From NCBI GenBank assembly GCA_021397835.1, contig JAJFZO010000609.1:684501-748500 (forward strand): 64,000 nucleotides of DNA, written 5' to 3'. The notes under the pieces are model-generated. The model saw only the letters and a program-made list of their open reading frames with translations. It was not told the origin of the DNA and ran no database searches. Every line of letters begins with the position of its first letter. Within the stretch, counting starts at the first letter, position 1. The translations under genes and the position numbers were made by a program. This DNA is from Moringa oleifera (Eukaryota; Streptophyta; Magnoliopsida; Brassicales; Moringaceae). Below, piece after piece: positions 32,001-49,842 of this stretch.

Positions 32001-35000
32001 CGGCAACAGTCAATGCCACTGCATCATATGAAAGAAAATGTATAAGATAAAAGGCTGAAACACCTGTCAGATACTCAAATATTGTCATCACATATGCTTA
32101 CCTATCAACCAGAACATTTTTAACGATAAGATCTGACATTGCATGCGCATATTCTGAGTGATCAAGAAAGTTCCTGCATCAAGAACCAAATCATGGCAAA
32201 TTACAATACAAAAAGTCAACCAATTCTCAAAATGAATGTTGCTGCAGGATGTTGCCATATAAAACTCAAATTTAAATATTAAGAAGTAACGAACTACAAT
32301 GGTATTAACGGCTAATCAGCCAAGTAAGAAAGAAATCAAATAATAAAAAATTGGTAACTAAGGAAAAACTACTATTGCTGAGAGATAACACCCGCCTTGA
32401 GAAGTAGTGAACCTCTGTGCCATTTTTGTGAATTTGGATACGGTCTCCATCAAATTTGCACTCCACAATTACATCCTTCCCATGAAGCTACACAAATGGG
32501 GAAAAGAAACAAAAACCCAAAGAAATTAAAGCTTCAAGAGTGAAGAAGTTTAAAACTAAGAAGAAAACAATCAATGAACAAAAATTTAAAAAGAAAAAGT
32601 ACTTAACAGAAAAACTAATGCGAAAACCTAAGCACAACCATAAGTTAAATGATACTATAACCCCTTAATAATTCTTGAATGTTTTGGATAAAATGAGTGG
32701 CTACTTACAGATGGAAGTCACCAAGCTGGTAAATTAAGTTGGCTAATCTATACCTTTTTCCATGCAACAATTGCATCACCAACTCGCATAGCTAGTTGTG
32801 GGCGCACAGCTTTTCCTACTTCAATATCCTGCAAAAGAAACGAATGTGAGTGCGACTACTAGTTTATAAAAAAGGCCCACCCTTCTTTTTCCTTACGAGC
32901 TTAAACAATGACACAATATATGAGGCACCTCACTACCTCGAAAATTATCTGTAAACAGTGGATCAGCCAATCAAGAAAAACTATGTCTTATAACATCATA
33001 AGAAGCTCCACTTTATGAATCCCATCAACAATTAAAACTGCCATAGCAAAGCACTATATTTGGGTTGTAACAAAATAAATTTAGAGAAAGCCTACTACGG
33101 AAGATCCAGATTGCATAGCTGGTCCTGCTAGACATTGTTACCTCATCATTTTCAAGGTTAGGATGTCATTTAGAGCACAATTCATGTTAACTATTTCCTT
33201 GGTAAACATTGAACGACAACTGAAGCAAGCCTGCCCAATGAAGATTGGAGTTTCCTTGAAAGGATTCCGTGTGGAATAATTGCAACATCAGTATCTTCCA
33301 CAGAGAGACAACCATAGTTTCTTCAGCTAACACTGTTCAAATCCCAATAACTGAGGTAGCATTTGCATTGCTAGAAACTATGGTAAACTGCAACCTTAAT
33401 GTTGGAGGGAATCATTGATCTTCAAAACATGCGGTTATACAGTCCTAAAAGTTTTAATTGCTTAATCACAAAGACAATTCAGTCAACTTCTATTTCAAAA
33501 GCATGAAAGCAACACCTTATTTCAAAAGCATGAAACTAACACCTTATTTGAATTCATTACTAGCTCATCATTAACAAAAGAATATATATCAAAGGAGCTT
33601 CCCATATACAATGAGAATCAGCCCTGTACCATCTTCCTCTAACTTCATTTCATGAAATCCACAAAATTCTTACCCCCCCCCCCCCAAATACCCAGAAAAA
33701 AAATTTCACTGTTGTTAAGTTATTATTCTCAGAGGTAGATCACATGCCAAGCCATTTCTATTGTTGTTAGTCACCATTTCATAAAGCAACCATAGCAGAT
33801 TCCACGTAGTTGCTTTAGTTGAGAGAGAGGGATTTTTGCCAAGAATAGGCAGACCTACATTTCCAAAAATTCAAGATATTTAGGTAAAATAGTTTAATAT
33901 AGTATATTGTATGAGTTTCTAAGAATCCCCAGATTTGTTCAATCAGAAGTGCAAGTTGGTTTTGTGTTGGTAATTCCATTTTGAGCAAAATCCTAGCAAA
34001 GCAAGTAAAGACTATCTATATAAACAGGTATCCATAATTTAAAGTATGAGGACTCTGACGTGGACTTGTTATAAGCCAATTGATTCTGATGAGTCATTGA
34101 CGCCTCAATAATGGAACAGGCAAGGCTATAAAGACACAAAAACATGAAAGTTAAAACTCAGTAAAAGAAAACAAAGCATTAGTTGAAATTACTATAGACA
34201 ACAATGAATGTGCATAAATAATTTCCACTTGCAAAACACTAAAAGAGATACGAAAAGAAAAGGCAAAAGTAAAAGTAAGAGATAGGCATAGCCTTAATGC
34301 TGCTTAATTTTTGGTTTCCAAAAAGCGAAAATATATACAGCAACTTGGAATATCCCATGCAGGCAGGTTAATTGACAAAAGTGCTGCTTCCATGATAGCC
34401 CAGCAATATATACAGAAACTTGGATTATCATATGAAGGAAGGTTAGTTGACACGACCTGCTTCTGTTTCCCTCTTGAGTGCACCTCATAACTCTGACTTA
34501 ACAATAACTTGTGATCATCTAAGTAAAATTGCATGCACTAGAGACATAAACTCAATATCTTCATTCTGAGTAAAATATTTTAAGAAGTTCTTCCCTAGAT
34601 ATAAGAGAGATAAAGAACTTTTTCATAACTTGTAACAAACCTGACGTTTATGCCGTTGATTGCAATCCCTTAACTTTTCACAAACCAATCTTAAGTCACA
34701 GGTGACATTAAACAAGTCTTCAGCATCCGGATGAAATTCATTAAAAATACTCTTTTCACTAATTCCCAGTTTCAAATCTGCAAAAAAATTGACCAGCATT
34801 GTTGGAAGCTCAGATCATATTCAACATAAGAAATAAGAACATATCTAATAACATGTTTAATAATAAGAAAAACCTTTAAGAATTATCATGATGATCCACT
34901 TCATTTCCTGTGCATTTGTCTTCTTGATAAGAGTAGAAAGAACTGAAGCCTTCTCTGATCTATCACCATTTAAAGGGCAAAAAGGAAAAAAAAAACAAAA

Positions 35001-37730
35001 AACAAAGTTAACAGACAAAGGTACTACCCAGCTTTCAGAAATAAAAAGATGGAACCAATAATTGAGCCAACTAATATATTATAAGGCTGAAATTTTTTTA
35101 AGTTACATCATTGACTGTTCAGCAGTTCAAATCAACATATAAAATCTTTGAACAAAAGATCACTCAACCAAAAAAATACCTGAAAGAAACCAAATGAGTA
35201 TACAATAAGAATATTGCAATGTCCATCTCTGTTATTAAAATTCTCAAAGAATTGCATTATTACAAGCTTATAAAAATAAAATCCAACCCTCAAAAGAAGG
35301 AGAAAAGAAATAACTCATGGCACTAAACACATGAGGAAATCTCTTTCTAAGAAAATGACTTAGAAACAGAAATGATCACCCTAAGGTCAAAGTAAATATG
35401 AAAGTCAAAAAAAGGGCACTTTCAATCAACAGTATACTTCAGCTTCAGCAACAGCATGCCCTTCACTGAACAAAAAATGAAACAATCATCAACAAGAAAG
35501 AGTACATTTCAGTAAAGCAAGGTATAGGAGGTTTTTTTTTTTTTTTTTTTTTGTGGGGGGGCGGGTAGAAACATGTATAATTATACTGCTACCATGACAC
35601 TGAGGGGATGCCTCCTATTTACAAGTATAAGAAACCTACGTAGAGCCAAGAAATTCAATGAAATCCACTAGGCTTTCTCATTTACAATATCCACCCCTTT
35701 GCCTCAAGGTATAGGTGTTAATTATAAGAGTGATAAAAGTATAAGGTGTCAAAACTCCTTGCAATACAAAAGACTCCCAATTTCAAAGTTACCAAGGAAT
35801 TCAGACAGCAGTAGCAGGAATCCATCAAGTTTCTCTGACACCACAGCTATTCTGTAGCCTAAGTAGGCATGATGAAGAACATGGAATTTTGACATTGTTC
35901 AATTTTTTGACAAATGACATTGTTTTAGTTCTTGATTACAAAAACTACCCTTGGACCAATCTAACATTCCATTGGGTTGTTTGCTGCAGAAAAACACTGG
36001 CAACCATTTTATGTCTTATCGGGCCTAATTATAAGCTTTTCAAAGTTACAAAAATTGTGCCAGAAATTAACAAAAAGTATATTCATGTACTTCTCCCAAA
36101 TTTTCTTGAAGAGTAAAACAGTAGTCACAAATAAAATCAATTTACCCTATGCAAGAAGTTTGCTAAGGGAGAGGAGAGTTAAATTCGACACTTGAGGAAG
36201 AGTGAAGGAAGTGAAACAGAGAAAAATTACAGACAAAGCAGAAAAAACACAAAGTTGGTCCCAGCAACAAGGGGCAAATTATTATATAATGCTGTTCCCA
36301 GTTTTTTTAAAAAAAGAAAGCAAGGGGGAGCAAGGTAACTGCTTTGCTCACGGGGAGAGGAGTAGGAACAACTTTAAGCACGATCCAATTTATGGATCTA
36401 TAGAGTAAGATTGCTTCGATCTAAGTAATCTGATTTGTTGTAAAACCAAAAATCTCATAGTTGCTTTAAGATAGATTCCCTGCAACAATAGCAGATATGT
36501 AGCAACTAGAAACTGTTCATACTACCCAAAATTCATTTCTGATGACACCACAACTTAAATGTGAGAGACCCTCAAATTCCCTATGAAATACACACACAGA
36601 GACAAACTACCTCATATACTCATTATCATGCTTTCTAATGAGATTCCTGATTGACAGTTTCCTCCCTGCAGTGTATCATCTTTCTGGAACACTCACCATT
36701 CACACTAATTCTATATTGCCAGAGTCATAAACAAATGAAGTAATTAAGGAAGGGAGTTTAGCAGCTACTCAGATGCGTAAATCTTCACAACATAACTACC
36801 TGGGTAATATTCATATATTAGAATTCCCTACAAAAGAATGAACAAAGAGAAAAGTTATACCTGTTTTCACTTGAAGCTAAACAATCAAGTAAGTCATTTA
36901 ACTCCTTAATCGTAAGTCCACCCGAAGTCATTCCTTGCCTGCGGTGCAGGACCTGTTTAGCAAGAAGTGCACTGCATATTTATCATGAACCCAATCAAAC
37001 AATAGAATGCCGTCACAAACACACACTGTAACAGCTATAACCAACTACTATTGATCTCCCTTTCACAATAATCTTTCGTATGTTCAATCAAAGGTCAACC
37101 ACTATATCGATGCGTCAGGAAAGAAACCGAATGGGATTTTCACGTGCACGAATGGTGCATGACACAACTAAAGTTTACCATCATTCAGCTAGTACCCAAA
37201 GCAATTTGTCCCACCAATCTCCAAGACAGGAACACCAAGAAAGGAAGTACTTAAGCTTATTCAAAAAAAAATTTTAAAAAAAAAAAACTGTAAACATATC
37301 GAAAGACCCAGAAGTAATCAATCCCAACAAAAAACCATAAAGCACACAATCAACTGCTGGGCTATTGGAGAATAAAGAGGAGCTCAAAAGGCAATACCTC
37401 GGCGGCGACAAGCGCGAAATTGCCGGCACTGGCACCCGTGCTAGAGCCACCTTTTCGCCAGTTGATGAGACGTAAGGCGTCCTCGGAGTCCCTGGCCATG
37501 CCGAGGGCATCGATGAGACAGGTGGCTAGAACAGACTCCTTGAGCCCATAAGTCCCGCGCTCTCGGTCTAGCGATGGCAGGATCAGCCGAATCGCACTGA
37601 AGTAGTCCTCGGGTTTGCAGAACGTGTCCAGAAATTTGCGGAACTTAGAGCGCTTCTGGACCAATGTTTTGCTTTTTTGTACCCAGTTGAAGAGACTCAC
37701 TACGACATTAAACTTGGTTTGCCCCGTCAT
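7864..37730 (-). CDS. LIG4: DNA ligase IV (complete, 27 coding exons)
   Basis: ATP-dependent DNA ligase IV seals double-strand breaks in non-homologous end joining with XRCC4 in the nucleus. Coding exons (high to low coordinate): 37730-37398, 36952-36861, 34959-34874, 34777-34641, 32828-32754, 32487-32396, 32173-32102, 28671-28592, 28496-28459, 28368-28362, 28213-28058, 26657-26582, 24628-24504, 24416-24382, 24297-24239, 15974-15891, 15418-15323, 15228-15180, 15043-14956, 14845-14642, 14177-14052, 13921-13822, 13736-13631, 13491-13361, 13258-13097, 12562-12413, 8629-7864. They join without a frame break into 3,525 nt, 1,174 residues, close to the usual length of plant LIG4. Ligase motif I is KFDGDR with the adenylated Lys at residue 252; motif III is LDGE (299-302); motif IV DEGIVLK (416-422); motif V GKWLKLK (435-441). 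All junctions are GT-AG except one GC-AG. The start MTGQTKFNVVVSLFNW matches the family N-terminus. Exon borders are inferred from splice signals and family conservation; there is no transcript. Confidence 0.96.
8630..12412 (-). other. LIG4 intron 26 (3.8 kb)
   Basis: No coding exon or intact transposon was found. A GC-richer stretch at 9677-9790 with gcctcggctcaagtgcc and gaggcagttaaggtgagcc resembles a dispersed plant repeat with AGGC/GCCT symmetry, but I cannot name it. The frame near 10392-10724 has no family resemblance. Confidence 0.5.
12413..14845 (-). CDS. LIG4: LIG4 exons 20-26: tandem BRCT region
   Basis: Residues 594-919. Exon 20 is a Lys/Ser-rich linker (KRLKSSKRGEKQNIS) leading into BRCT1 at about 656-740 (FANVPPFHSLESLHK, VVENGGTFSMNLNNSVTH, IIHYSWILDSC). 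Exons 23-24 form the inter-BRCT segment that binds the XRCC4 coiled coil in known ligase IV proteins. BRCT2 is at about 797-912 (LMLEVLMGGGKVSNNLA, THLVVLSLPG, VVRSQWLEDSLERE). The Trp residues typical of both BRCT repeats are present. The donor of exon 21 is GTCTCTCTC, running directly into a CT repeat. Confidence 0.92.
14019..14050. repeat. (GA)16 microsatellite at a splice donor
   Basis: A perfect GA dinucleotide run on the plus strand, CT on the gene strand. Its distal end abuts LIG4 exon 21 (ends at 14052), so that the donor reads GTCTCTCTCT. A second short GA run lies at 14570-14585 in intron 20. Confidence 0.95.
14956..24416 (-). CDS. LIG4: LIG4 exons 14-19: OB-fold domain
   Basis: Residues 457-594 include GGYYGSGRRGGE (exon 14), VAQFLVALAERPGPNLYPRR (15), FISFCRVGTGLSDEEL (16), KKAPPNFYQVTNHSKERPDV (17), SIILSITSDIRTIRSE (18) and FAAPYSLRFPRIDRVRYDKP (19). 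This is the OB fold that closes the active site, with motif VI RFPRIDRVRYDK near the end of exon 19. Exon 19 uses the donor T^GTATGAGG, one base past a tempting CA^GTGTAT, because only the former keeps the frame into exon 20. The 8.3-kb intron 15 between exons 15 and 16 holds several transposons. Confidence 0.93.
16359..16603 (+). repeat. 5' LTR of the copia element
   Basis: About 245 bp, aligned over its length with the 3' LTR through shared blocks such as gatttaggagtctgttattt, cacaattagttcctattt-like and ttactgataataaaataatc. It ends in CA directly before the primer-binding site. A TATA-like tgtatataaata lies near 16544. Confidence 0.85.
16622..17625 (+). pseudogene. Copia gag remnant with CCHC zinc knuckle
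   Basis: Fragments in several frames give SQWSQSVMMFACSRGCKDYL, SNLAISWLISS, ITEIGENFPLYSVVKEIWDA and FSSKENTAELFRIDRI, typical of the copia gag (UBN2-like) domain. A complete CCHC knuckle, CDCCQKPGHVKETC, is encoded at about 17471-17512. Stops and frame changes near 16640, 16920, 17138 and 17470 prevent a full-length product. Confidence 0.85.
17760..18835 (+). pseudogene. Copia protease and truncated integrase
   Basis: The protease active site appears as VDSSASDD near 17778, with the usual Gly changed to Ser. It is followed by SVPNLDCNLLSMSKLNKDLN and the GAG-pre-integrase motif LWHYHLGHSN near 18210 with its CDVCQLSKH zinc-binding part. Part of the RNase H-fold core has been deleted after about 18485 and again near 18650, so the DDE triad is incomplete. 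Confidence 0.85.
19305..20800 (+). pseudogene. Copia reverse transcriptase and RNase H remnant
   Basis: The RT start (KNRTWILRNLP, VWCKWIFSIKHKANGSVEQF), PPGF and the catalytic YADD box (VYADDIVLT, near 19888-19914) are visible in shifting frames, followed by an RNase H block with VVACSSVEAEF near 20480 and DNQSAIAI near 20610. Stops occur about every 100 nt after 19570, so it is not functional. Confidence 0.85.
20848..21100 (+). repeat. 3' LTR of the copia element
   Basis: About 253 bp starting TGTAGAAAATC right after the purine tract and ending CTTCA. It carries a small internal expansion of ttacaatttctta relative to the 5' LTR. Confidence 0.85.
21290..22230 (+). mobile_element. LINE 3' fragment (zf-RVT region)
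   Basis: Broken plus-strand frames give FWHDRRCGDKCLSEEYPLG near 21405, AVWKHNSSNNDRFAAKSFF near 21580, then KSIWRANVPMKVAFTWEA near 21690 and KERNGRAFEGIE-like text near 22010. These belong to the C-terminal zf-RVT and tail of plant L1 LINEs. No polymerase core is present, as expected of a 5'-truncated copy or old fragment. Confidence 0.7.
23220..23790 (-). mobile_element. 5'-truncated LINE copy with poly(A) tail
   Basis: Read on the minus strand, the sequence encodes REAMKGKILTIYNLKKWRK, then HYLCKEQEETVFHLLVGC (zf-RVT) and ends in an untranslated part and an A tract, seen as T16 at about 23221-23236 on the plus strand. The tail and the missing upstream part are the signature of a 5'-truncated LINE insertion. 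It is a different copy from the fragment at 21290-22230 and runs in the opposite direction. Confidence 0.75.
24504..32487 (-). CDS. LIG4: LIG4 exons 6-13: adenylation domain
   Basis: Residues 242-456 form the nucleotidyltransferase core. Exon 6 holds the active-site Lys252 in KFDGDR; exon 8 holds CILDGEMLVWD; exon 11 holds AFDILYVGDTSVIHQSL; exon 13 holds DEGIVLKDLGSKWEPSDRSG and the motif V lysines. All catalytic signature residues are present, so the enzyme is predicted active. The intron after exon 6 uses a GC donor. Exon 10 is only 7 nt long and is needed to keep the conserved LCYxAFD sequence. Confidence 0.93.
24629..28057 (-). other. LIG4 introns 11-12 and exon 12
   Basis: Two introns (26658-28057 and 24629-26581) flank the 76-nt exon 12 (26657-26582), which encodes EPCWSRIAYSVDDVDKFFKE. 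I see no transposon or other gene in these introns. Confidence 0.6.
28362..28368 (-). CDS. LIG4: LIG4 exon 10, 7-nt microexon
   Basis: On the minus strand TTATGCT sits between a strong acceptor (ttttctgtgcag) and a GTATCC donor. Exon 9 ends in phase 0 with a Gln codon, and exon 11 begins ATCTTGCATTTGAT after ggctag. Joining through the microexon gives Gln-Leu-Cys-Tyr-Leu-Ala-Phe-Asp, matching the conserved LCYVAFD of plant LIG4. Skipping the microexon leaves exon 9 (phase 0) and exon 11 (entry phase 1) out of frame. Inferred from sequence; RNA is needed to confirm it. Confidence 0.8.
28672..32101 (-). other. LIG4 intron 7 (3.4 kb)
   Basis: Long intron without coding exons. A candidate LTR fragment lies at about 29540-30060. 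The remainder shows no recognisable transposon or RNA gene. Confidence 0.55.
29540..30060 (+). mobile_element. Possible solo LTR or LTR fragment
   Basis: The stretch has a non-intronic, GC-richer texture and contains aaaggcacatg after a TATA-poor lead, a pyrimidine/T-rich polyadenylation-like part (tttctttattattctctt) and gactgacttgagcgtcgaag near 29996. The gacttgagcgtc word is common near the 3' end of plant Ty3/gypsy LTRs. No internal retrotransposon sequence and no clear ends were found, so the call is tentative. Confidence 0.4.
32394..32396 (-). other. GC-type splice donor of LIG4 intron 6
   Basis: Exon 6 must end TCA-AG to join G-AAC-TTT of exon 7 and give the conserved Phe-Ser-Arg-Asn-Phe-Leu. 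The next two intron bases on the minus strand are GC (CAAG^GCGGGT). The nearest GT, four bases further, would break the frame. GC-AG introns are a known minority class spliced by the normal spliceosome. The acceptor before exon 7 is a normal gatgcag. Confidence 0.85.
32754..37730 (-). CDS. LIG4: LIG4 exons 1-5: DNA-binding domain
   Basis: Residues 1-241 form the alpha-helical N-terminal domain that wraps the DNA and, in other ligase IV proteins, binds Artemis. Exon 1 (111 codons) carries KRSKFRKFLDTFCKP and DYFSAIRLILPSLDRERGTYGLKE-type helices and ends exactly before GT of its donor (gccgag^gtattg). Exons 2-5 supply LTIKELNDLL, EMKWIIMIILKDLKLG, EFHPDAEDLFNVTCDL and VRPQLAMRVGDA. The ATG has a purine at -3 and no upstream in-frame ATG with family similarity. 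Confidence 0.94.
32829..34640 (-). other. LIG4 intron 4 (1.8 kb) with small duplications
   Basis: Non-coding. It holds a two-unit diverged duplication of about 61 bp (34330-34390 and 34405-34465, period 75), a two-unit 28-bp repeat around caaaagcatgaaa (about 33492-33546) and a run of C at about 33674-33686. Confidence 0.6.
34960..36860 (-). other. LIG4 intron 2 (1.9 kb)
   Basis: Non-coding. A T22 run followed by a G-rich stretch lies at 35531-35565. Short open frames near 35889-36408 have no family resemblance. Confidence 0.5.
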
Positions 37731-37950
37731 TCTTTCTTTCTCATCACCACAAAAGCATTTGAAATGTTGGGGTCTTATACCAGAAGAACGCAGCAGTGGG
37801 TAACTTGCAGTGGAAGGATTTTCTGTTCCTTAATTTTATTTTTATTTTTATTTTTTCCTCTATTCCTTGTGGATGACACCGGCAAAAATCCAAATCCTAT
37901 TAAGCATTAAAAGACGCGTGGTCGACCAACAAGGCTACACGTCATCAAAA
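37731..37950 (-). promoter_or_regulatory. LIG4: LIG4 upstream region
   Basis: The 220 bp before the start codon on the minus strand hold a purine-rich leader (gagaaagaaagaATG) and are less AT-rich than DNA beyond 38 kb. No clear TATA box is seen, as is common for plant housekeeping and DNA-repair genes. The transcription start cannot be placed. Confidence 0.35.
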
Positions 37951-39466: not shown

Positions 39467-39658
39467 ACAATTACGTTTTTCTTTTTCTATGATGATTTAT
39501 TTTGAAAAGTTATAAATTTTAAGATAAATATTATTTTAAATTTTAAATTTTATTTTCTCTTTAATAAAACTTTAATTTGAAAATATTTTCAAATAAATTT
39601 TAATTTATTAATTTAAATTAAATTAAATTTATTAAAAATTTAAAAATTAAAGATATTT
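39467..39658 (+). repeat. 192-bp direct duplication, left copy
   Basis: Begins acaattacgttttt and ends agatattt. It matches 49651-49842 over all 192 positions with two C/T mismatches. The sequence just inside (39659 onward) is of the virus-derived block, so this is AT-rich host DNA duplicated at the outer edges of the block. Confidence 0.9.
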
Positions 39659-39830
39659 TTTGTTTCTTTATTTTCAAGTTTGCAATATAGTGTTTTTCTT
39701 GTTTTAATTTCAATATAATTCCAGTATTGTTTTCAGCATCTGTTCTATCATCTAACCATTCCATTTCTATAATTATTTACTGTTCTATCATCTGGGGACT
39801 GGAGTGTACTTATCAGGGAAAATAGGTTAG

Positions 39831-40749
39831 AACTTTCCTATAGGACTAGTAGTTAAAGAAGAGGTCGCTAAGATTAAGGTTAGAATAGAATTATTATTAA
39901 ATTCTGAATTGTCCATATTTGGTAAAGAAACTGTTTTCTCGTTCTCACTTGAAAATGAGGGAGAAGAGATATAGGACAAGTGGTACATAGGATACCAATG
40001 GAAGACTATGAATGTTATGAGTGTTGTAGTAATTATGAGTATTGTGATGATTATAGTTATGAATATTGTAGTAATCAAGAATATGATTATAGGGAAACTT
40101 GTGATGATTATGAAGATAATTGTCCAAGTACTAGTTATAGAGAATATAGCCAGGAATACCACGAAGATCTAGAAGATCGGTACGATACAGAAAGTTTAGA
40201 CCAAGAGTACCAACCTTACGGCCAAGATAGCTATTCTGGAATTAGATATTTATCTAAACCCAGAAAAGTAGGCAAATTAGTTAGTGGAAAGCCTCACTAC
40301 TCAAACCAGACATCCTACTTCAAGCAATCAACAAACTCCTAGAAAAGGAATCCAAACCCAAACAACCAAAGTTTCAAATAGACAAAGATTTCCTTAAGAT
40401 AGACTTCAACTCAGAAGCCAATAAGCAAAAACGAGAATGGTTTATGACCATCTTCTCAACAGAACGAAGGAGTCAAATTAGGGAAATATATTACCAAAAA
40501 ATGGAAGAAAAACAAAAGAATATAGGATTCTTCGTATGGTTCGAATCCTATACACAACAAGAAGGGATAGTATACCCCTTCAAAACCCAACAAGAGGCCC
40601 TCAAGGCCAACAAAGCCCAACAAGAGGCCCCTGAGGCCAATGAAACCCAACAAGAGGCCCACAAGGCCAATAACAAACAAAAAACTAGGAATAGAAAACC
40701 TAGTCCTCCAAAGACGGAACCTCCTAGAAGTAGTTTTAGCCGAAGATAA
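39831..40749 (+). pseudogene. Pararetroviral ORF fragments before the intergenic region
   Basis: Three open stretches in different frames: a 45-residue fragment to a TAG near 39970, an acidic Tyr/Asp/Glu-rich stretch (39980-40342, many YEC and DYE words) and a basic stretch (from about 40316 to the TAA at 40749) containing IGFFVWFESYTQQEG and then a short repeat of QQEAxxAN units before a Lys/Arg/Pro-rich end. They stand directly upstream of the viral intergenic region, which fits the 3'-terminal coding part of a genome. The acidic part recalls caulimovirid structural or accessory proteins, but I cannot assign a specific protein. Frame breaks make it a pseudogene. Confidence 0.6.
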
Positions 40750-41055
40750 CTGGTTAGTACACCTCGGAAACTGCTGGTGTTTTAAAGGCAATACGCCTAA
40801 ACTGCTGGTGTTTTAAAGGTGGTGTGTTTACACTGCTGGTGTTTTTAGGATAGTGTACTGAAAGCCAAGAAGCCAAGAGAGACCCGAAGTAAGTCCCGAA
40901 GGAGAGGGCAGCAGGGTAAGAAAGGGCAGAAAGGCATAAGCATTAAGCACTGTCGAATCCAGTGTAGGCACCAAACACTACCCAATCCGGGATAGGCACT
41001 AGTATTGTCCAATCTGGGGACTGGAGTGTACTTATCAGGGAAAATAGGTTAGAAC
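40748..41055 (+). repeat. Viral intergenic region, copy 1 (308 bp)
   Basis: Nearly identical to 44747-45054 (three substitutions seen). It contains three copies of actgctggtgtttt at about 31-bp spacing (near 40770, 40801, 40832) and three degenerate copies of a gaATCC-gG-TAGGCAC unit (about 40955-41030). After gaac at 41055 it passes straight into AT-rich DNA and lacks the TATA part. Confidence 0.9.
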
Positions 41056-44000
41056 TTTCCTATTTTATTATATTTTAGAATGTCAATAACATTAATAGGA
41101 TTATCTCGATTATTCTTAAACTATTCTTGAATTGTTGGATTTTTTTTAATATACGAGATAAGATTAGATTATTTTGATGAGATAAGATAGGATTAGATTG
41201 AAATTATAATAATAATATGATTGTTCGATATAACGTGACATATGATAAAATTAAAATTTATTTATTTTAAGATTTTCAATATCGAAAAATAAGATAATAT
41301 AATAGATTATACTATAATTGATAAGTTATTATTTAAATTTTAATTCAAAATTATTTTATATTTTTATAAAAAATAATACAAAATTTTAGTATTCATCTCA
41401 TCATGTTTAAAAAGTCTTATTTGTATGGATATGGTTTTGAATATAATGTGCTTTTAAATAATTTAAATGAATTTTTAACGAATTTGAGTTTTTAATATTC
41501 AAATCGAGTCAGAATAAAAATTAAGTTTAAATATTTGGATAATGGAATATGTAATTGGATTAATAGGTAAATTTTTTAATTTAATTATATTAGAATTTTA
41601 ATTTGAATTTTATTATATCAATTTTAAAATTTTATTTTATGTTTTTATTTTAGTAATATATCATTATATATATATATATATATTTATTTTTATTAATGTT
41701 TGTTAATTTATTTTAAAATTTAATTATATTAAATTGGTTGGTAAATAAATATTTGATGGTATATATTATTTTAAAATCTATGAAATATAATTATATATAA
41801 ATATAATAAATAAGTTCAGATAAATTTAAGTAATATAAAAAATAATTTTAAATAATTTTAAATCTAAGTGCCTCATAATAAACTTTAGAAAACTCATCAT
41901 GGGAGAGAATGATGATTTTCTTTCTTATATTTTTAGAACAAAAGTTATATACATATAATATTTTTAAAATATTAATATTTTAAATCTAATCTCTAAATAG
42001 TAAAATTTTGAATTCAAAGTTCAAATTCAAAATTTAAAGATAAGTTTGATTTCAAAATTTTGTTCTTTACATGTAAACAAAATTTTTAATCTTCTGAATA
42101 TCAAAAGTGTGATGAAGTGATAAAAATTCAAGTTCGTTTATTAAATTTAAGATTCTCTATTTTACGTTATTTGTAATTTTTTATATTTGTTATTTAAGCT
42201 TTTTCTTGTTTTTTATTATTATTATTATTATTATTATTGTGTTTGTGAAAAGATATATTACAATATTCATTACAATTAATGATCAAATTGAAGAAAGAAA
42301 ATTATTAAAATTTTAAAATATCAAACTTTATTACATCTAAAAAATATTAGCCGTAAGTTTTTGTTTTAAATTTTTTATTTTTTATATATCTTTTATTTGA
42401 TGATAAAAATAATTTTTAATAAAGATTTAATTTTCAATAATAATTAAAGTATAATTTTTCAATTATCTTTTGTGCATTGCACCAAGCTAGTTTTTTCCTA
42501 TTTTCAAATAGTGTGTTTGAAGGTGCATGAACCCTACTTTGTTTATTAGCAAAATATGGTGATAGCTTTCATGAATATTTAAGAAAAAATAATTCAATCC
42601 AATTTTTATGATAATGAAAGCAAATATAAATTTTTTTAAGTTTTACTTGTTTTTTAATTTAAATTTTATCATCTTATTATTTTTAATTATATATTCAGAT
42701 TAATTTAAATTTTTAAAATTAATTAAATTTTAACTAAATAAAATTTATATAAAATTTTAATATTTATATTATATTATTAATTAAATATTTATATTTTAAT
42801 AACAATATAATAAAATATATTTTATTAATTTAATTTAAATTACAATTTTCAAGAAAAATAATTATAAAAAATAAATTATTTTTTATTATTAAAATGTTTT
42901 AAAAATGATCGACATGAATTAATATATATTTTAAATTTTAATTTAAAATTTATTTACTATATATTTTTAAACTATATATTTTAAAACATATATTTTTAAC
43001 ACTTAAAAAAATTTAAAATTTTTTGTACTATAATTAATATTTTTTATATTCATGAAAAATTTTAACTTAAAATTTATTGTAAAGTTTTTTAATTTAAATA
43101 TCTCAATTTGTTAATTTTTTTTTGATAGATTCTATTTAGATCAAATTAATAGATTAAGATTTAATTTATCACTATTTAAATATTAATATTTATTTAATAA
43201 TATAAAAGTTTTCATGTTATTTTTATTTTTAAATAAATATAAATATAGTAATAAAATCAATAAATAATATATTTTTTACTTATTAGTTTTAATAATTTAA
43301 TAAACTGTAAGGTAGATTTTATTTAGTAAAAATATTAAAAATTAAAAATATTTAAATTAATGATTTTTTACTATAAATTTTATTCAAATTTTTTAAAATT
43401 ATAAAAAATATTTAAACTATCATCACAAACATTTAGTATTTTTTAAGTATTAAAAATTCTTTTTTACAAAAATTAGACTATCAATTTTCAAAAAAATTAA
43501 TAAAAAATTATTTAAATTTGATTGCTGAAATCAAAATAAAATGTAAAATTTTATTTATTCAATTTTTTAAATATTTTGATAAAAAATATCATTAATTTTT
43601 CACAATTATTTAAAATAAATATGTAATTTAAATTAATTCTATAAATTAAAATTTATTTTTATACTTTTAATAATCTACATTTTTTTTTCAAAAGAGGAAA
43701 TAAAATTTAAGGTTTTGAATAACTTCATCTTAAATTATAAAATTTATTTATTTATTTATTTAAAACATTAATATAAATGAAATCAAGTGAAGATATTGAT
43801 TTTATTACGCACATAAGATCATTATCTTTAAAATTTTTAATAATTTTTATGATAATAATTAAATAAATTTCTCAAAAATATTAAAGATTTCATATATTGA
43901 AAATTTAGATCATCATTTGTTATTATTGAAAACCATAAAGTTAGGCTAAAACCAATAGGCCTTAGAATTACATTCTAAGACATTAAGTTTTTTTTTTTTA

Positions 44001-44724
44001 ATTATTATCAGATATTAAATTTTGTTATTTAAAAAATAATAATAAATTATATATTAATGCAGCGATATAAAAATTTAATAATTTATATTATTTAATAAAA
44101 AATTAAAATTTCAAGTGACCTGTCAACGCACGTATAGTAAAATTTTTTATTAAATGAAGAAAAAAACTATTACTTTTCTTAAAAAAATAAAATTTAAAAT
44201 TTTTTTAAGATTGTATGAATTTTAAATTTAAACTATATATTTCAAAATAAATAAAATATATTTCATATTTTAAAAAATGTTTTCAAATATTCTCATTTTA
44301 TCTTCATATTTAAATATATAATGTAATTTAAATTATAAAATCAAAAAATTATGTAAATATTATTTAAACTCAACACTTATTTAAATAATCGGGTAACATA
44401 CTATAGTTTTATATGACATTTATCAATAAAATTATATATATATAGTTTCATAAATATAAAATTTCAATAAGAATGACATAATAAATTCAAATTAATTAAT
44501 AATGTCAAATTTAATAGTTAAATGCCTTTAAACTGCAGTTATTATTGTTGAAAACGCTATTTTTTAAAATGTATTTCAAACAAAATTCCTGGATATTTTA
44601 ACAAGATTGTATCTACGTTAACGTAAAACTCTATTTTTATGAGATTAAAGGGTAAAAATTTCTCGAATTTGATTGAAGTTCATTTTCTCATATTGTAAAT
44701 TAGACCTAGAAAACAAAATACCTT
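41056..44724. other. AT-rich DNA between viral segments
   Basis: About 3.7 kb of extreme AT content, with a (TA)n run at about 41659-41683 and a (TTA)n run at about 42211-42238. No coding region. It resembles the DNA outside the block in composition. It may be older host DNA, filler captured during integration, or a separate insertion. Confidence 0.6.
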
Positions 44725-44746
44725 CATTCCATTTCTATAATTATTT

Positions 44747-45054
44747 AACTGGTTAGTACACCTCGGAAACTGCTGGTGTTTTAAAGGCAATACGCCTAAA
44801 CTGCTGGTGTTTTAAAGGTGGTGTGTTTACACTGCTGGTGTTTTTAGGATAGTGTGCTGAAAGCCAAGAAGCCAAGAGAGACCCGAAGTAAGTCCCGAAG
44901 GAGAGGGCAGCAGGGTAAGAAAGGGCAGAAAGGCATAAGCATTAAGCACTGTCGAATCCGGTGTAGGCGCCAAACACTACCCAATCCGGGATAGGCACTA
45001 GTATTGTCCAATCTGGGGACTGGAGTGTACTTATCAGGGAAAATAGGTTAGAAC
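44747..45054 (+). repeat. Viral intergenic region, copy 2 (308 bp)
   Basis: The partner of the copy at 40748-41055, with the same triple actgctggtgtttt and triple TAGGCAC-type units. Unlike copy 1 it continues without a break into the viral promoter and leader. Confidence 0.9.
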
Positions 45055-45376
45055 GATTTCCACTCAAGAATGAAGAGACACCACCAAGAAAAGAGAGGAA
45101 CACTCAAGAAGCTCTCCTCACTATAAAAGGAGAACTCAAGGACCCAAGAAGGCAGAAGTTATCTCCACGGATAACTCACCACAAGATTCAAACTTGAATC
45201 TTACAATCTTAGGTAGTCCCCTTGATCTTCTCATAAGAAGCAAGGAACTAAGTCGATTATTGATTGTAAGTATTCACCCAGACAAGACCATATAGTGACG
45301 ATCGTTAACTTGTAACGACGCACTATCAAGATTATCTATGTTTTTGTTTCTTTATTTTCAAGTTTGCAATATAGTT
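45055..45376 (+). promoter_or_regulatory. Pararetroviral promoter and leader
   Basis: A TATA box, ctataaaagg, lies at 45121-45130 within cctcactataaaa, followed by a leader with several short direct words and no long frame. This arrangement matches the full-length-transcript promoters of caulimovirids. It would drive plus-strand transcription into AT-rich DNA, since the coding part does not follow directly. The last 36 bp (45341-45376) repeat the start of the whole block at 39656-39690. Confidence 0.75.
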
Positions 45377-46437
45377 TCAACAATAAAAATATTTTTATAA
45401 TTATTTAAATCAAAATTTAAATTAAACAAAATGAAAACTTTATTTAGATCATTTACGTTAAATTAAATTTTTCAAAAAATATTAAATCATTTTAAAATTA
45501 CTATTAAAATTAATAAAACTATAAATAAATACAGTGATCCTACTTTATTTAATTATATCATAATAATACTAAATAAATGATTTTATAAGAAACAATCTTA
45601 TAATTATATAAAATGATTTTAAAATTATAAATAGTTTCATTAAAATCAAGGTGAGTTAATCAAATCACTAATCTTTGGTGTATGCACGTAATTATCAGGA
45701 TGTAAGTGGGTAAGTGTTTAATATTCACAAATTAATGGGTGAGTTTTTGAATATTGAGAAAATAAGAGGACAAATCTCTAATTATTTGGTAAACTTGAAT
45801 TAGATATGTGACAAGACCTCACTAACCAATTAAAACTGACTTGATTTGGTTTTGATTGGATGAATCATGCTCGCATTTGGCCACACAATTTTGCTTATCT
45901 TGAAATGATATGTCTGCTTCTGCCAAATATCCGGTTAAGTGACAGTCATTAATTCTGCCACCTATTATGAAGATGACAGCATTTATTTCTTAATCTCATT
46001 TTATGAGTTAAATTTAATTTTGTTTTCAATGCAAAAATAATACCGCTATAACCGTAAACAAATTTCTATTTTTACATGTCATTGAATTTTATTATAATTT
46101 GAATCATAATTTTTTATGGATCTTATTTATTTTTAAAAAATTAGATAAAAAATTATATAAAATTTTAATATTTATTTTATACTATCAATCTAATATTGAT
46201 TTATCAATTTAATTTAAATTATATATTTATTTAAATAGTTATAAAAATTTAAAAATATTTTTATTATTAAAATATCTCAAAAATAATTTAAATAAAATTT
46301 TTAATTTTAAATCAATTTTTTAATTTTAAATAATTTTTAATTTAATAATAAATTATATATATTTAAAAATTTTAGAATTATAAATTAAAAAACATATTTT
46401 TTAGCATTAAAAAAATTTTAAATTTTTCTATGATAAT
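45377..46437. other. AT-rich DNA between viral segments
   Basis: No coding region recognised. The central part (45650-45990) is less AT-extreme and has ordinary non-coding texture; the rest resembles the surrounding AT-rich DNA. Confidence 0.5.
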
Positions 46438-46882
46438 AGCTTGAGCATTTCTTTATATCTCCCAAGAAGTAGACTCTTCTCAAGATTCTCAAAACCTTTT
46501 CAAAAAACCCAAGAATCAAATAGTCCAAGACTCAAGCCAAGGCCAAGGAGGCTATTCCAATCTATCCGGCCCAATTAGCCCAATTCAAAGCCAAACAGGC
46601 TATGAAGGACTAACCCAAAATCAATCTGTCCAGAATGACAAAAGTCAAGACCAAAAAGACTATGTAAGTCTAACTGGTCCAACCCAAGTCCAAACACAAG
46701 ATAGCCAACCAACGGGGTATCTAGAAAACCCAGTGAGTCAAGAACATTCAAGCCCAAAAGACCAAGAGGCCCAGAAGCCCATACAAGCAGCTGACCTTAT
46801 CCAGGAACAGCCACTAGTCAGACAACCAAGGACGACTGTAAGGATGATCATATCCGAACATTCGGTCCAACTAACGTACTAA
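46438..46882 (+). pseudogene. Viral polyprotein linker fragment (Gln/Ser-rich)
   Basis: An open stretch from about 46469 to a TAA at 46880-46882, rich in Gln, Ser, Asp and Pro, with repeated SQDxQ and GYxxL words. Such disordered linkers occur between domains of caulimovirid polyproteins. The frame stops and coding continues in another frame into the protease region. Neither the upstream movement/coat part nor a start codon is seen. Confidence 0.55.
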
Positions 46883-47760
46883 ACCTTGCACTATACCTTG
46901 CACTAATTAAGAACAAGGTTAGTAACAAGGCCCAAGCTGATCAGGCCATCCAAAGAGACCAAACTATTGGTCTGCTCAAAAAGGATTCAACCCAGGAACT
47001 AGACAACAAAGAGACTGAACCCTCAGTAGTCTATTCCAGGAATGAACCCCAAAAGCCTCTCCAGGAACCTAAGTATATCCTGGTAAGAGAACCCAAAACA
47101 GAAGGAATCCTTCCTTCAACAGTCAAACCAAACCTAGACATAGGCCCAATCCGAAAAACGACAGAATGGAATCTGGTCATTCCAGAAACCTTTCCAAACT
47201 TCCAAACAGCCGAGGATCTATTTAGATCATCAAACCAAATAAACTTGATTCGGTCAAGTAGACAAAATCAAGTTAAAATTCAAGACTTATATTCAGAAGT
47301 CAATAGGCTCAAGAACCAGATTAGTCAATGTCCGAAAGACAATCGGATACAAATCCAAAAGTGGTATGTCCAAGCCACACTGGTAATTAATGGTGATTTC
47401 CATTTGATTACCACAGCCCTTGTAGACTCAGGAGCTGATCAAAACTGTATACAAGAAGGGTTGATCCCAACCCAATATTATGAGAAAACAACAGAAAGGC
47501 TTTACGGAGCCAATGGAGTGGAACTTCAAGTCAAATTCAAACTCACAAAAGTCAAAATATGCAATAATGGATATTGCATCAAAACCCCTTTTATCCTAGT
47601 TCAAGATTTACGACAAGGACTGATATTAGGAAGTCCTTTCCTCATAAAGATATATCCTTTCTCAGTAGATCAGGAAGGAATATCTACAACCATACTAGGA
47701 GAACATGTCAAGTTCAGGTTTATTAAACCTATTCAAGACAAAGAATTAGGAAATTCCTGA
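46883..47760 (+). pseudogene. Pararetroviral aspartic protease fragment
   Basis: The frame carries VDSGADQNC with catalytic Asp in the codon at 47425-47427, then a flap-like YGANGVEL and the C-terminal LILGSPFL motif typical of retropepsins of plant pararetroviruses. It ends in a TGA at 47758-47760, where the RT region continues in a different frame. In an intact virus both belong to one polyprotein, so this is a broken copy. Homology to a gypsy protease is possible in principle, but the neighbouring RT favours a caulimovirid. Confidence 0.75.
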
Positions 47761-47761
47761 A

Positions 47762-48919
47762 ATTCAAAACAAACAGAAACAAATTAGGTATCTTCATGAG
47801 GAGATACAATATCAAAAGATAGAAGAACAACTAGCAAAACAAACAGTCCAGAACAAAATCAAAGACATAGAAACAAAACTTCAAAAAGAAGTATGTGCAG
47901 AAATACCTAATGCCTTTTGGAGTAGAAACACCTATAAGGTAGCACTGTCATATGAACCAGACTTTAGAGAAAGTCAAATTCCAACCAAAGCTAGACCAAT
48001 CCAAATGAACCAATGACACTTAGAGTACTGCAAAAAGGAAATACAAGAGTTATTAGACAAAGGATTAATTAGACCAAGCAAATCTCCATGGAGTTGTGCT
48101 GCATTTTATGTTTATAAAAATGCAGAGGTAGAAAGAGGAGCTCCAAGATTAGTCATAAATTACAAACCTCTCAACAAAGTACTCAAATGGATTAGATATC
48201 TAATCCCAAACAAAAGAGATCTGATTAACAGGTTATACAAAGCAAAAATCTTTTCAAAATTTGACATGAAGTCAGGCTACTGGCAAATACAAATAGAAGA
48301 ACAAGACAAATACAAAACAACTTTCAATGTACCCTTTGGGCAATACGAATGGAATGTAATGCCATTTGGTCTCAAGAATGCCCCATCAGAATTTCAAAAC
48401 ATCATGAACGAAATCTTCAATGATTATGTCTCATTCTCAATAGTTTACATAGATGATGTATTGATCTTTTCAGAGTCAATAGATCAACATTTCAAGCATT
48501 TAGAAATCTTCTCAAACATCATCAAAAGAAAAGGATTAGTAATATCTTCAAAAAAGATAAAGATATTCCAAACCAAGGTTAGATTCCTAGGATTTGAGAT
48601 ATCCCAAGGAACTATCACCCTAATATCTCGGTCTATTGAATTTGCTGACAAATTTTCAGACGAGATCAAAGACAAAACTCAACTCCAAAGGTTTCTAGGG
48701 TGTCTGAATTATATCTCAGACTTTATCCCTAACCTTAGGCAAACTAGCAAACTATTATTCCAAAGGATTCGAAAGAATCAACAAAACAAAGAATGGACAC
48801 CACAAATGACAGAGATAGTCAAAGACCTGAAGGCTAAGGCTAAGTCATTGCATTGTTTAGGTATACCCAATCCCGAGGCACCTCTAACTGTGCAGACATT
48901 GTTTAGGTATACCCAATGA
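47762..48919 (+). pseudogene. Pararetroviral reverse transcriptase, truncated
   Basis: RT of the Ty3/caulimovirid type: KGLIRPSKSPWSCAAFYV, RLVINYKPLN, KFDMKSGYWQI, PFGLKNAPSEFQ, the catalytic YIDDV at 48446-48460, FLGFEISQGTI and LQRFLGCLNYISDF. An in-frame TGA at 48014-48016 interrupts the N-terminal part. The sequence stops after PEAPLTVQT at the point where RNase H should begin. There a 21-bp duplication and an inverted promoter piece follow. It is therefore non-functional. Confidence 0.88.
48851..48917 (+). repeat. 21-bp direct repeat at viral breakpoint
   Basis: The word cattgtttaggtatacccaa plus t occurs at 48851-48871 and again at 48897-48917. The first copy is inside the RT coding sequence; the second lies exactly where the RT sequence ends. 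It looks like template switching during repair. Confidence 0.85.
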
Positions 48920-49650
48920 ATTAAAAGCACAATAGGAAGCAAAACATTAATACTGAAATTTATTAAAGCAAAGTGTAATACAATAAAAACACGATATTGC
49001 AAAATTTAAAAACAGAATAAAAACATAAGGTAGATCTTACAAAATTGCTGCCAGGTATTATCCTCTAATTTGTAATACAGAAATTATTTGCTCATAAACT
49101 ATGAGCTTTTGGTGTTTGGGATATTTTGAAGAAGGGGTTTTGGATGTGTCGAAGATTGTGGGATCTTCGGAGGTTTGGGATGTCTGTCTTGAAGATGAGA
49201 AATCTTGAAGTTGAAAAGTCTAATGAAAAGCCTGCCTCTGGATACCTTCAGGTTCCTATTTTATAGTGAGGAAAGCCCTTTGGCGTCTTTTCGTGCTTGA
49301 GTGGGAATCTTTTCCCTTTTGAGGTGTCTTCTGCTTTTGTTAATGGAGGCTCCTTTTTCTTTTGTGAGAATCTCCTTTTGGTAGTGGAGTGTCTTGTCCT
49401 GTCTTTGTTGATTGAGGCCAACTCAGCTTTTCTTTTCTTTTAGGAAAAGTAGTGAGCGAAGGTTGGCCATGTGTTCTTGTCATGTGGTGGCTTTGGATGC
49501 TTTGTTATCCATTGCCTTGTTTGATTCCTTTGTCTTCTTTTGATGGCTCTGGATTCGTTCTTATCCGTTGCCTCTGTTTGATTTTGTTTGATTCCTTTGT
49601 CTTCTTTTGATGGCTCTGGATTCGTTCTTATCCGTTGCCTCTGTTTGATT
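48920..49650 (-). promoter_or_regulatory. Inverted pararetroviral promoter segment
   Basis: On the minus strand this holds cctcactataaaatagg (TATA near 49256-49272), the same core as in the plus-strand promoter at 45116-45128. A leader follows downstream on the minus strand toward 48920. Upstream, at 49517-49650, lie two perfect tandem copies of a 67-bp unit, an enhancer-like duplication. The segment is in opposite orientation to the RT piece, so the integrant was rearranged. Confidence 0.7.
49517..49650. repeat. 67-bp perfect tandem duplication
   Basis: Two units, 49517-49583 and 49584-49650, each beginning ttgtttgattcctttgtctt and ending cctctgtttgatt. No mismatch was seen. The array ends exactly at the right edge of the viral block. 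Confidence 0.9.
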
Positions 49651-49842
49651 ACAATTACGTTTTTCTTTTTTTATGATGATTTATTTTGAAAAGTTATAAA
49701 TTTTAAGATAAATATTATTTTAAATTTTAAATTTTATTTTCTCTTTAATAAAACTTTAATTTGAAAATATTTTTAAATAAATTTTAATTTATTAATTTAA
49801 ATTAAATTAAATTTATTAAAAATTTAAAAATTAAAGATATTT
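49651..49842 (+). repeat. 192-bp direct duplication, right copy
   Basis: Partner of 39467-39658. It begins at the base after the tandem viral repeat and runs into ordinary AT-rich DNA at atttaatttc. See the left copy for the comparison. Confidence 0.9.

What the first reader, a model, noticed from the sequence alone, without database searches (positions are those of the whole stretch)
39467..49842. 192-bp direct duplication brackets a 10-kb virus-derived block
39467-39658 and 49651-49842 are the same 192 bp with two C/T differences, and viral sequence starts and stops exactly at their inner edges. Known pararetroviruses have no integrase and no defined target duplication. A long duplication of target DNA suggests one integration by repair of widely staggered breaks or by replication-based repair, or else a later segmental duplication. 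It also dates the event by comparing two once-identical sequences.
Basis: partly seen in the sequence, partly recalled or inferred. Interest (0 to 1): 0.75.

Follow-up and report, generated by a model that had tools for sequence, protein, structure and literature searches.

The report
Virus insertion with long target duplication
In this plant genome a stretch of ancient virus DNA, patched together with copies of plant DNA from three other places, sits between two copies of a 192-base piece of chromosome, and three other insertions of related viruses carry the same kind of long duplication, which suggests that these viruses, which are not known to carry a DNA-inserting enzyme, entered the chromosomes during repair of breaks.

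Summary
The duplication is real: 39467-39658 and 49651-49842 match at 190 of 192 positions and viral homology ends at their inner edges. The block is not all viral: 4,749 of 9,992 bp (48%) are copies of host DNA still present at C35:1.68 Mb, C1:5.48 Mb and C1:4.02 Mb. Five once-identical comparisons diverge by 0.55-1.04% and are homogeneous (p = 0.88): one episode fits. The design recurs: 4 of 11 endogenous caulimovirid loci with both flanks examined carry near-identical host duplications (120, 192, 337, 444/446 bp) next to the viral block; 7 do not; a twelfth was inconclusive. In 231,911 bp, mostly around viral loci, no other host pair of at least 100 bp and 97.5% was found that is not tandem. 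Best reading: viral DNA and ectopic host templates served as filler while a break with long staggered ends, mostly in AT-rich DNA, was repaired and its overhang copied on both sides. This repair class is known in plants; I found no report of it for pararetroviruses in the passages read. Empty site and species are unavailable.

The parts
39467..39658 (+). Left copy of the duplicated target (192 bp, 92% AT)
   Evidence: among scored candidates only two places match in full
39659..39784 (+). V1a, viral leader fragment
   Evidence: 95-96% to C35:1914.3k and 1915.5k
39790..40725 (+). V1b, viral coding piece with DUF7588 (PF24496)
   Evidence: Pfam E 1.8e-19; 88-89% to C84, C35:1924k and C491
40722..41061 (+). 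V1c, viral leader piece, out of order; joined to V1b through about 5 bp of microhomology (read by eye)
41062..42700 (+). H1a, copy of host DNA at C35:1680366-1681993
   Evidence: 13 substitutions in 1,627 aligned sites
42701..44724 (+). H1b, copy of host DNA at C1:5483492-5485495
   Evidence: 17 substitutions in 1,984 aligned sites, counted from 42720
44725..45061 (+). Scrap of about 21 bp like V1a, then V2a (44746-45061), near-copy of V1c
   Evidence: 3 differences in 304 sites against V1c; the scrap was seen by eye
45052..45375 (+). V2b, viral promoter/leader piece with a TATA-like motif
   Evidence: 93-95% to C35 and C84 copies; the TATA motif was seen by eye
45376..46461 (-). H2, copy of host DNA at C1:4022972-4024056 (inverted)
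   Evidence: 6 substitutions in 1,085 aligned sites
46462..48898 (+). V3, viral aspartic protease and reverse transcriptase
   Evidence: RVP E 1.2e-9, RVT_1 E 9.2e-37; best other copy 91% among 40 scored of 142 candidates
48914..49650 (-). V4, viral non-coding/promoter piece, inverted relative to V3 when compared with the C2 array; ends in two exact 67-bp copies, 49517-49583 and 49584-49650, the second ending at the host junction
49651..49842 (+). Right copy of the duplicated target

Best explanation
A germline chromosome broke, or was nicked on both strands about 190 bp apart, in a very AT-rich stretch next to a DNA ligase 4-like gene. During repair the ends were joined through filler: fragments of caulimovirid DNA present in the nucleus and DNA copied from three other host sites, strung together by short microhomologies and template switches in an end-joining/polymerase-theta-like way. 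The single-stranded stagger was copied on both sides, so the 192 bp now bracket the insert. Related viruses entered other places in this genome the same way with staggers of 120, 337 and about 445 bp. Shown: the duplications, their abutment, the mosaic, the retained sources and the similar divergence. Inferred: the nature of the break, the enzymes, and that the virus was episomal.
For: (1) Four loci have near-identical host duplications next to viral DNA: window 192 bp (2 mismatches), C84 120 bp (1), C35:1683k 337 bp (1), C3 444/446 bp (0 mismatches, 2 gap positions). (2) The 337-bp target is found at 2 places in the genome only (2 of 2 candidates scored); the C3 target at 2 places, the next best-scoring being 72% (40 of 69 candidates scored). 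(3) The four true flank pairs score 213-793 bits at 99-99.7%; 72 mismatched left/right flank pairs from nine loci scored at most 193 bits, at 73% over 355 columns. (4) Divergence of target pair, host copies and internal viral duplicate is homogeneous, p = 0.88, pooled 41/5,192 = 0.79%. (5) The sources are still in place, so host pieces were copied. (6) Junctions read by eye show 0-5 bp overlaps or short fillers; the C3 left junction carries 12 nt that are an inverted copy of the insert's other end. (7) Three of four targets are 85-93% AT; AT as high as in the window target occurs in 0.2% of 1,114 local 192-bp windows. (8) One of eight viral ends (C35) lies within 0-4 nt of the primer-binding site, a natural discontinuity of such viral DNA (recalled; PMC526188 passages name discontinuities as preferred ends).
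Against: 7 of 11 loci show no such duplication (C35:1914k, C491, C627:192k, C77, C2, C516, C84:895k); age, deletion, nested events or another route could each explain that. The C35:1683k target is only 67% AT, close to the local median of 66% in the window. There is no empty site. The same structure can come from replication-based template switching or from recombination of a circle carrying a piece of the target. About 35 bp at the C84 right junction are unexplained. The 67-bp repeat at the window's right junction may be viral: tandem repeats of 118-127 bp occur in the corresponding region of three other copies. The best control pair (193 bits) comes close in score, though not in identity, to the shortest true pair (C84, 213 bits).
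Confidence: 0.6

Rival explanations
1. Replication-based template switching (MMBIR/FoSTeS-like): a stalled fork copied viral and host templates in turn and re-entered the chromosome upstream of where it left, so 192 bp were copied twice.
For: Several host and viral templates in one insert, microhomology at junctions, the 67-bp repeated end, sources retained.
Against: Re-entry should give deletions as well as duplications; the loci without duplication could not be tested for deletions. It needs viral templates at the fork; the best resident match to V3 is 91% among 40 scored of 142 candidates.
Confidence: 0.23
2. Integration of a chimeric circle by homologous recombination: a circle of viral DNA and host scraps, including the 192-bp target piece, recombined with the chromosome by a single crossover.
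For: A similar model was proposed for transposed Arabidopsis genes flanked by direct repeats of 30-550 bp (PMC2869330, abstract and section 8 read). Host sequence from C35:1.68 Mb sits beside virus at C84 as well as here.
Against: The same molecule would have carried 1.1-2.0 kb of homology to C35 and C1, yet would have used 192 bp. Three of the four targets are unusually AT-rich, which random captured pieces need not be.
Confidence: 0.1
3. The virus used a transposon's integrase or a LINE-type nick-and-copy reaction.
For: Hybrid mechanisms with retrotransposons have been proposed (passages of PMC10377300). LINE-type target duplications vary in length (recalled).
Against: Target duplications of 120-446 bp are far longer than the short ones integrases make (recalled). 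By eye I saw no poly-A tail in the junction stretches printed; the window copies do not have TG...CA ends as LTRs do. Retrotransposon sequence at the junctions was not searched for.
Confidence: 0.03
4. Later event or artefact: a tandem 192-bp duplication existed first, or a segmental duplication or misassembly made the pair.
For: About 148 bp of the target is a dispersed repeat type.
Against: Insertion at a tandem boundary would be needed at four loci; no near-identical copy of the outer flanks was found; the contig is 13.8 Mb long.
Confidence: 0.03

Closest known systems
Endogenous caulimovirids / florendovirus-type insertions (PMC4241990, PMC10377300, PMC526188: passages found by terms)
   Same: Fragmented, rearranged and partly inverted viral pieces in AT-rich DNA; filler-DNA repair already proposed for them.
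   Different: No long target duplication is described in the passages seen; PMC4241990 says that short stretches can be gained or lost at insertions compared with empty sites. Here duplications of 120-446 bp and, in the window, ectopic host filler are seen.
Plant insertions with tandem duplication and ectopic donors, 'patch-mediated' break repair (Vaughn and Bennetzen 2014; seen only as summarised in a passage of PMC7407515)
   Same: Duplicated target and inserts with several donors; asymmetrical nicks followed by end joining proposed.
   Different: Those inserts are 10-1000 bp; here the bracketed blocks are about 1.5, 4.6, 10 and 16.3 kb and contain virus.
Transposed Arabidopsis genes with flanking direct repeats (PMC2869330: abstract and section 8)
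   Same: Direct repeats of 30-550 bp bracketing an ectopic copy, often present at the orthologous target.
   Different: Genes, not viruses; the authors favour circle recombination.
NUPT/NUMT clusters in plants (PMC7037861: passages found by terms)
   Same: Mosaics of fragments joined by microhomology as filler at breaks.
   Different: Organellar DNA; long target duplications are not mentioned in the passages seen.

Membership tests
Endogenous caulimovirid (Caulimoviridae) | Retroviral-type aspartic protease and reverse transcriptase | tested here: met
   RVP and RVT_1 in V3
Endogenous caulimovirid (Caulimoviridae) | Viral movement protein and caulimovirid coat domain | tested here: inconclusive
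   MP (PF01107) and Caulimovir_coat_dom found at the related locus C35:1914k, coat domain also at C3; not in the six open frames of the window block that were scanned
Endogenous caulimovirid (Caulimoviridae) | tRNA-Met primer-binding site TGGTATCAGAGC (motif recalled) | tested here: inconclusive
   Exact in related stretches of C84, C35 (two loci), C491, C516, C2 and C77; not found with up to 1 mismatch in the C3, C49 and C627 stretches, nor with up to 2 in the window block
Endogenous caulimovirid (Caulimoviridae) | No integrase | tested here: inconclusive
   No integrase hit in the pieces scanned; the whole virus was not scanned
LTR retrotransposon | LTRs with TG...CA ends and a 4-6 bp target duplication outside them | tested here: not met
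   The 192-bp copies start ACAATT and end GATATTT; the outer five bases differ (read by eye)
Patch-mediated / staggered-break insertion | Direct duplication of the target bracketing the insert | tested here: met
Patch-mediated / staggered-break insertion | Ectopic donors copied, sources retained | tested here: met
   (window block)
Patch-mediated / staggered-break insertion | Empty site with a single copy | not testable with these tools
   Only this one genome is held, without relatives

The most novel reading that the evidence does not exclude
Pararetroviruses of this lineage enter plant chromosomes by a recurrent route with its own signature: paired nicks 0.1-0.5 kb apart, mostly in AT-rich DNA, capture of linear viral DNA (at times by its primer-site end) together with copied host DNA, and a long target duplication. 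Every young insertion would then carry its own clock and a map of the break.
Probability: 0.25. Interest if true: 0.8.

Novelty: new variant of a known kind. Interest (0 to 1): 0.64.

Why it matters
How integrase-less pararetroviruses become inherited is described as poorly understood (PMC4241990, passages). Long target duplications at 4 of 11 loci give a concrete, testable footprint. At the window, C84 and C3 they mean that AT-rich DNA was the target rather than baggage, a point that PMC526188 says its rice data could not settle. They also date insertions: 0.79% pooled would be about 0.3-0.6 million years at recalled plant rates of 1.3e-8 to 7e-9 per site per year, with the species unknown.

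Tried and rejected
LTR or TRIM reading of the 192-bp pair: rejected on ends and lack of an outer target duplication. Dispersed-repeat explanation: the AT-rich family exists, but among scored candidates only this pair matches in full. H1a first looked 93% similar to C35; this was over-extension past the H1a/H1b joint, and cut at 42700 it is 98.4%. C516's 165-bp direct repeat (copies 6,215 bp apart) is taken as viral terminal redundancy, because its left copy lies in a match to viral V4, and not as a target duplication. C84's small viral block at 895k has no bracketing pair but lies 22 bp from a copy of C35:1681353-1682774. C77's flanks share AT-rich similarity (best 71.7% over 247 columns) and C627's 68% over 197; both are within the range of mismatched controls and were counted as negative. 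Rfam and tRNA scans of the window found nothing. C515, a 76% hit, was fetched as a possible source of H1 and led nowhere. Species: a DNA ligase 4-like exon gave 50-88% matches, so the plant is not named. One search ran but returned no matches at all, probably because of an unsupported BLAST scoring setting; it was repeated with other settings.
Full report
The observation. The two 192-bp copies lie exactly where stated and differ at positions 21 and 124, C in the left copy and T in the right. Neither copy extends further on either side. The window lies at C563:684501-748500 of a 280-Mb genome in 669 contigs. Of 64 matches to the 192 bp (40 of 1,324 candidates scored), only these two span all of it; the other 62, at 68-87%, show that its last 148 bp or so belong to a dispersed AT-rich family. 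The left flank (567 bp; 9 of 9 candidates scored) has only matches of 61-136 bp at 72-84% elsewhere, and the right flank (1,158 bp; 40 of 1,325 scored) none above 82%. So no segmental duplicate and no empty site was found in this assembly.

What lies between. I mapped the 9,992 bp against other copies in the same genome. Viral pieces: V1a leader, V1b (DUF7588), V1c leader, V2a/V2b leader and promoter, V3 (protease and reverse transcriptase), V4 (non-coding, inverted). Host pieces: H1a from C35:1680366-1681993, H1b from C1:5483492-5485495, H2 from C1:4022972-4024056 in reverse. Host pieces sum to 4,749 bp, 48% of the block. In other viral copies V1b and V3 are neighbours, so V1c-H1a-H1b-V2-H2 (5.7 kb) sits inside a viral stretch, with about 13 viral bases lost and no target duplication of its own (read by eye).

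Direction of copying. C35 and C84 share sequence that runs straight across the H1a/H1b joint of the window (C35:1681353-1682774 against C84:895458-894046, 97.75%). The joint in the window is therefore derived and the window is the recipient for H1a. For H1b and H2 only one other near-identical copy was found (40 of 5,490 and 40 of 2,283 candidates scored), and direction rests on parsimony: three separate sources meet only here.

Age. Substitutions over aligned sites: H1a 13/1,627, H1b 17/1,984, H2 6/1,085, V1c against V2a 3/304, target pair 2/192 (indels not counted). A chi-square test finds no heterogeneity (p = 0.88; pooled 0.79%); with counts this small it cannot exclude modest differences in age. 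By contrast the best resident match to V3 is 91% (40 of 142 candidates scored), so V3 was not copied from a resident copy seen here; an episomal virus or a lost copy is the likely source. V1c is closer to a resident copy: 96% to C491, and its near-copy V2a 98%.

It recurs. Twelve endogenous caulimovirid loci were examined, eleven with both flanks. They are a small part of what the genome holds: one search lists 131 reverse-transcriptase matches, though those at 34-38% look like other retroelements. Four have a near-identical host duplication next to the viral block: the window; C84:906558-906677 and 922964-923083 (120 bp, 1 mismatch, around 16.3 kb); C35:1683196-1683532 and 1685065-1685401 (337 bp, 1 mismatch, around 1.5 kb); C3:6722081-6722524 and 6727161-6727606 (444/446 bp, no mismatch, 2 gap positions, around 4.6 kb). 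Host and viral edges lie within 5 bp of each other, except 12 bp at C3 left and about 35 bp at C84 right; at C84 left this rests on a 57-bp inverted viral piece at 906676-906732. Seven have none: C35:1914k, C491:522k, C627:192k, C516:351k, C77:345k, C2:4638k and C84:895k (C84:895k by self-comparison only). C49:2798k is inconclusive because only 572 bp of its left flank were fetched. Flank lengths examined differ: about 1.3-1.5 kb for C77 (both sides), C2 (left) and C516 (right), 1.9-2.2 kb for C627, 5-10 kb for C491 and C35:1914k. Loci were not picked for their flanks: some were best hits of the promoter searches, some were compact, and C35:1683k came in as the neighbour of a host source.

Controls. 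Mismatched left/right flanks (72 pairs from nine loci) scored at most 193 bits (73% over 355 columns); shorter ones reached 82% over 71. The four true pairs score 213, 338, 604 and 793 bits at 99-99.7%. Over 231,911 bp (the window and stretches fetched mostly around viral loci), direct repeats of at least 100 bp and 97.5% were nine: the four above, and five that are viral or tandem or both (for the viral calls see 37). The 337-bp target occurs at 2 places in the genome, both here; the C3 target at 2 places, the next best-scoring at 72% (40 of 69 scored). The C84 target was not searched in the whole genome. The C3 segment next to the right target copy recurs across the genome (43 matches) and encodes DUF7746 and a caulimovirid coat domain, so it is viral.

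Mechanism. Abutment, similar divergence, retained sources, several templates and short microhomologies (0-5 bp, by eye) fit repair of a break with filler. The bracketing duplication asks for a stagger of 120-446 bp that was filled, or for a copying process that re-entered upstream. C3's left junction holds 12 nt identical, in inverse orientation, to the insert's right end, which is typical of templated end joining (recalled; passages of PMC7407515 describe such repeats). At the window's right junction the last 67 viral bases are present twice, but tandem repeats of 118-127 bp in the same viral region at C84, C627 and C49 mean that this may be viral. At C35 the viral end is at the primer-binding site within 0-4 nt, one of eight ends, so suggestive only.

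Literature. Papers seen: PMC4241990, PMC10377300, PMC526188, PMC7037861, PMC7407515, PMC13308828, PMC1899175, PMC9719215, PMC10641527 and PMC4423477 as passages found by terms; PMC2869330 abstract and section 8. Searches were seen as listings. In those passages endogenous caulimovirids are said to enter as filler at breaks or with retrotransposon help, often in AT-rich or (TA)n DNA, and no long target duplication is described. This is a statement about these passages and searches only; most subscription papers are not held. Long flanking duplications around copied genes are known in Arabidopsis (PMC2869330), and ectopic-donor insertions and tandem duplications in rice (summarised in PMC7407515), so the process is of a known kind; its repeated link to pararetrovirus entry is what appears new.

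Limits. One genome, no relatives, no reads, species unnamed. Substitution rates used for years are recalled.

Noticed in passing
window 24499-37829, minus strand: Exons like DNA ligase 4 (DNA_ligase_A_N at 37365-37829; DNA_ligase_A_M pieces at 28038-28265 and, below the curated cut-off, 24499-24756; some matches named DNA ligase 4). The virus block lies about 1.8 kb upstream of the first exon seen, so a gene for end joining has a viral insertion in its 5' region.
   Followed up: partly
C35:1680366-1682774; C84:894046-895458; window 41062-42700: Overlapping parts of one host region, which itself lies just beside a viral insertion at C35:1683k, were copied next to virus at two other loci. Chance reuse of one region in 280 Mb seems unlikely; a linked or circular chimera is possible.
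   Followed up: partly
window 40725/46462; C84, C491; L041 2054-5008: Several copies join the DUF7588 piece directly to the protease, while one C35 copy has DUF7746 and a coat domain in between. There may be a coat-less form alongside a fuller one.
   Followed up: no
C2:4638467-4670052: Five reverse-transcriptase matches of equal score spaced about 6.2 kb apart on one strand: a head-to-tail array; the C516 block has a 165-bp repeat at 6,215 bp spacing.
   Followed up: no
C77:350433-354140; C35:1914292-1915574: Viral promoter/leader pieces present as close inverted repeats at several loci.
   Followed up: no
window 16604-18482: Exact tRNA-Met primer-site motif and a GAG-pre-integrase frame: probably a Ty1/copia-like element.
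   Followed up: no
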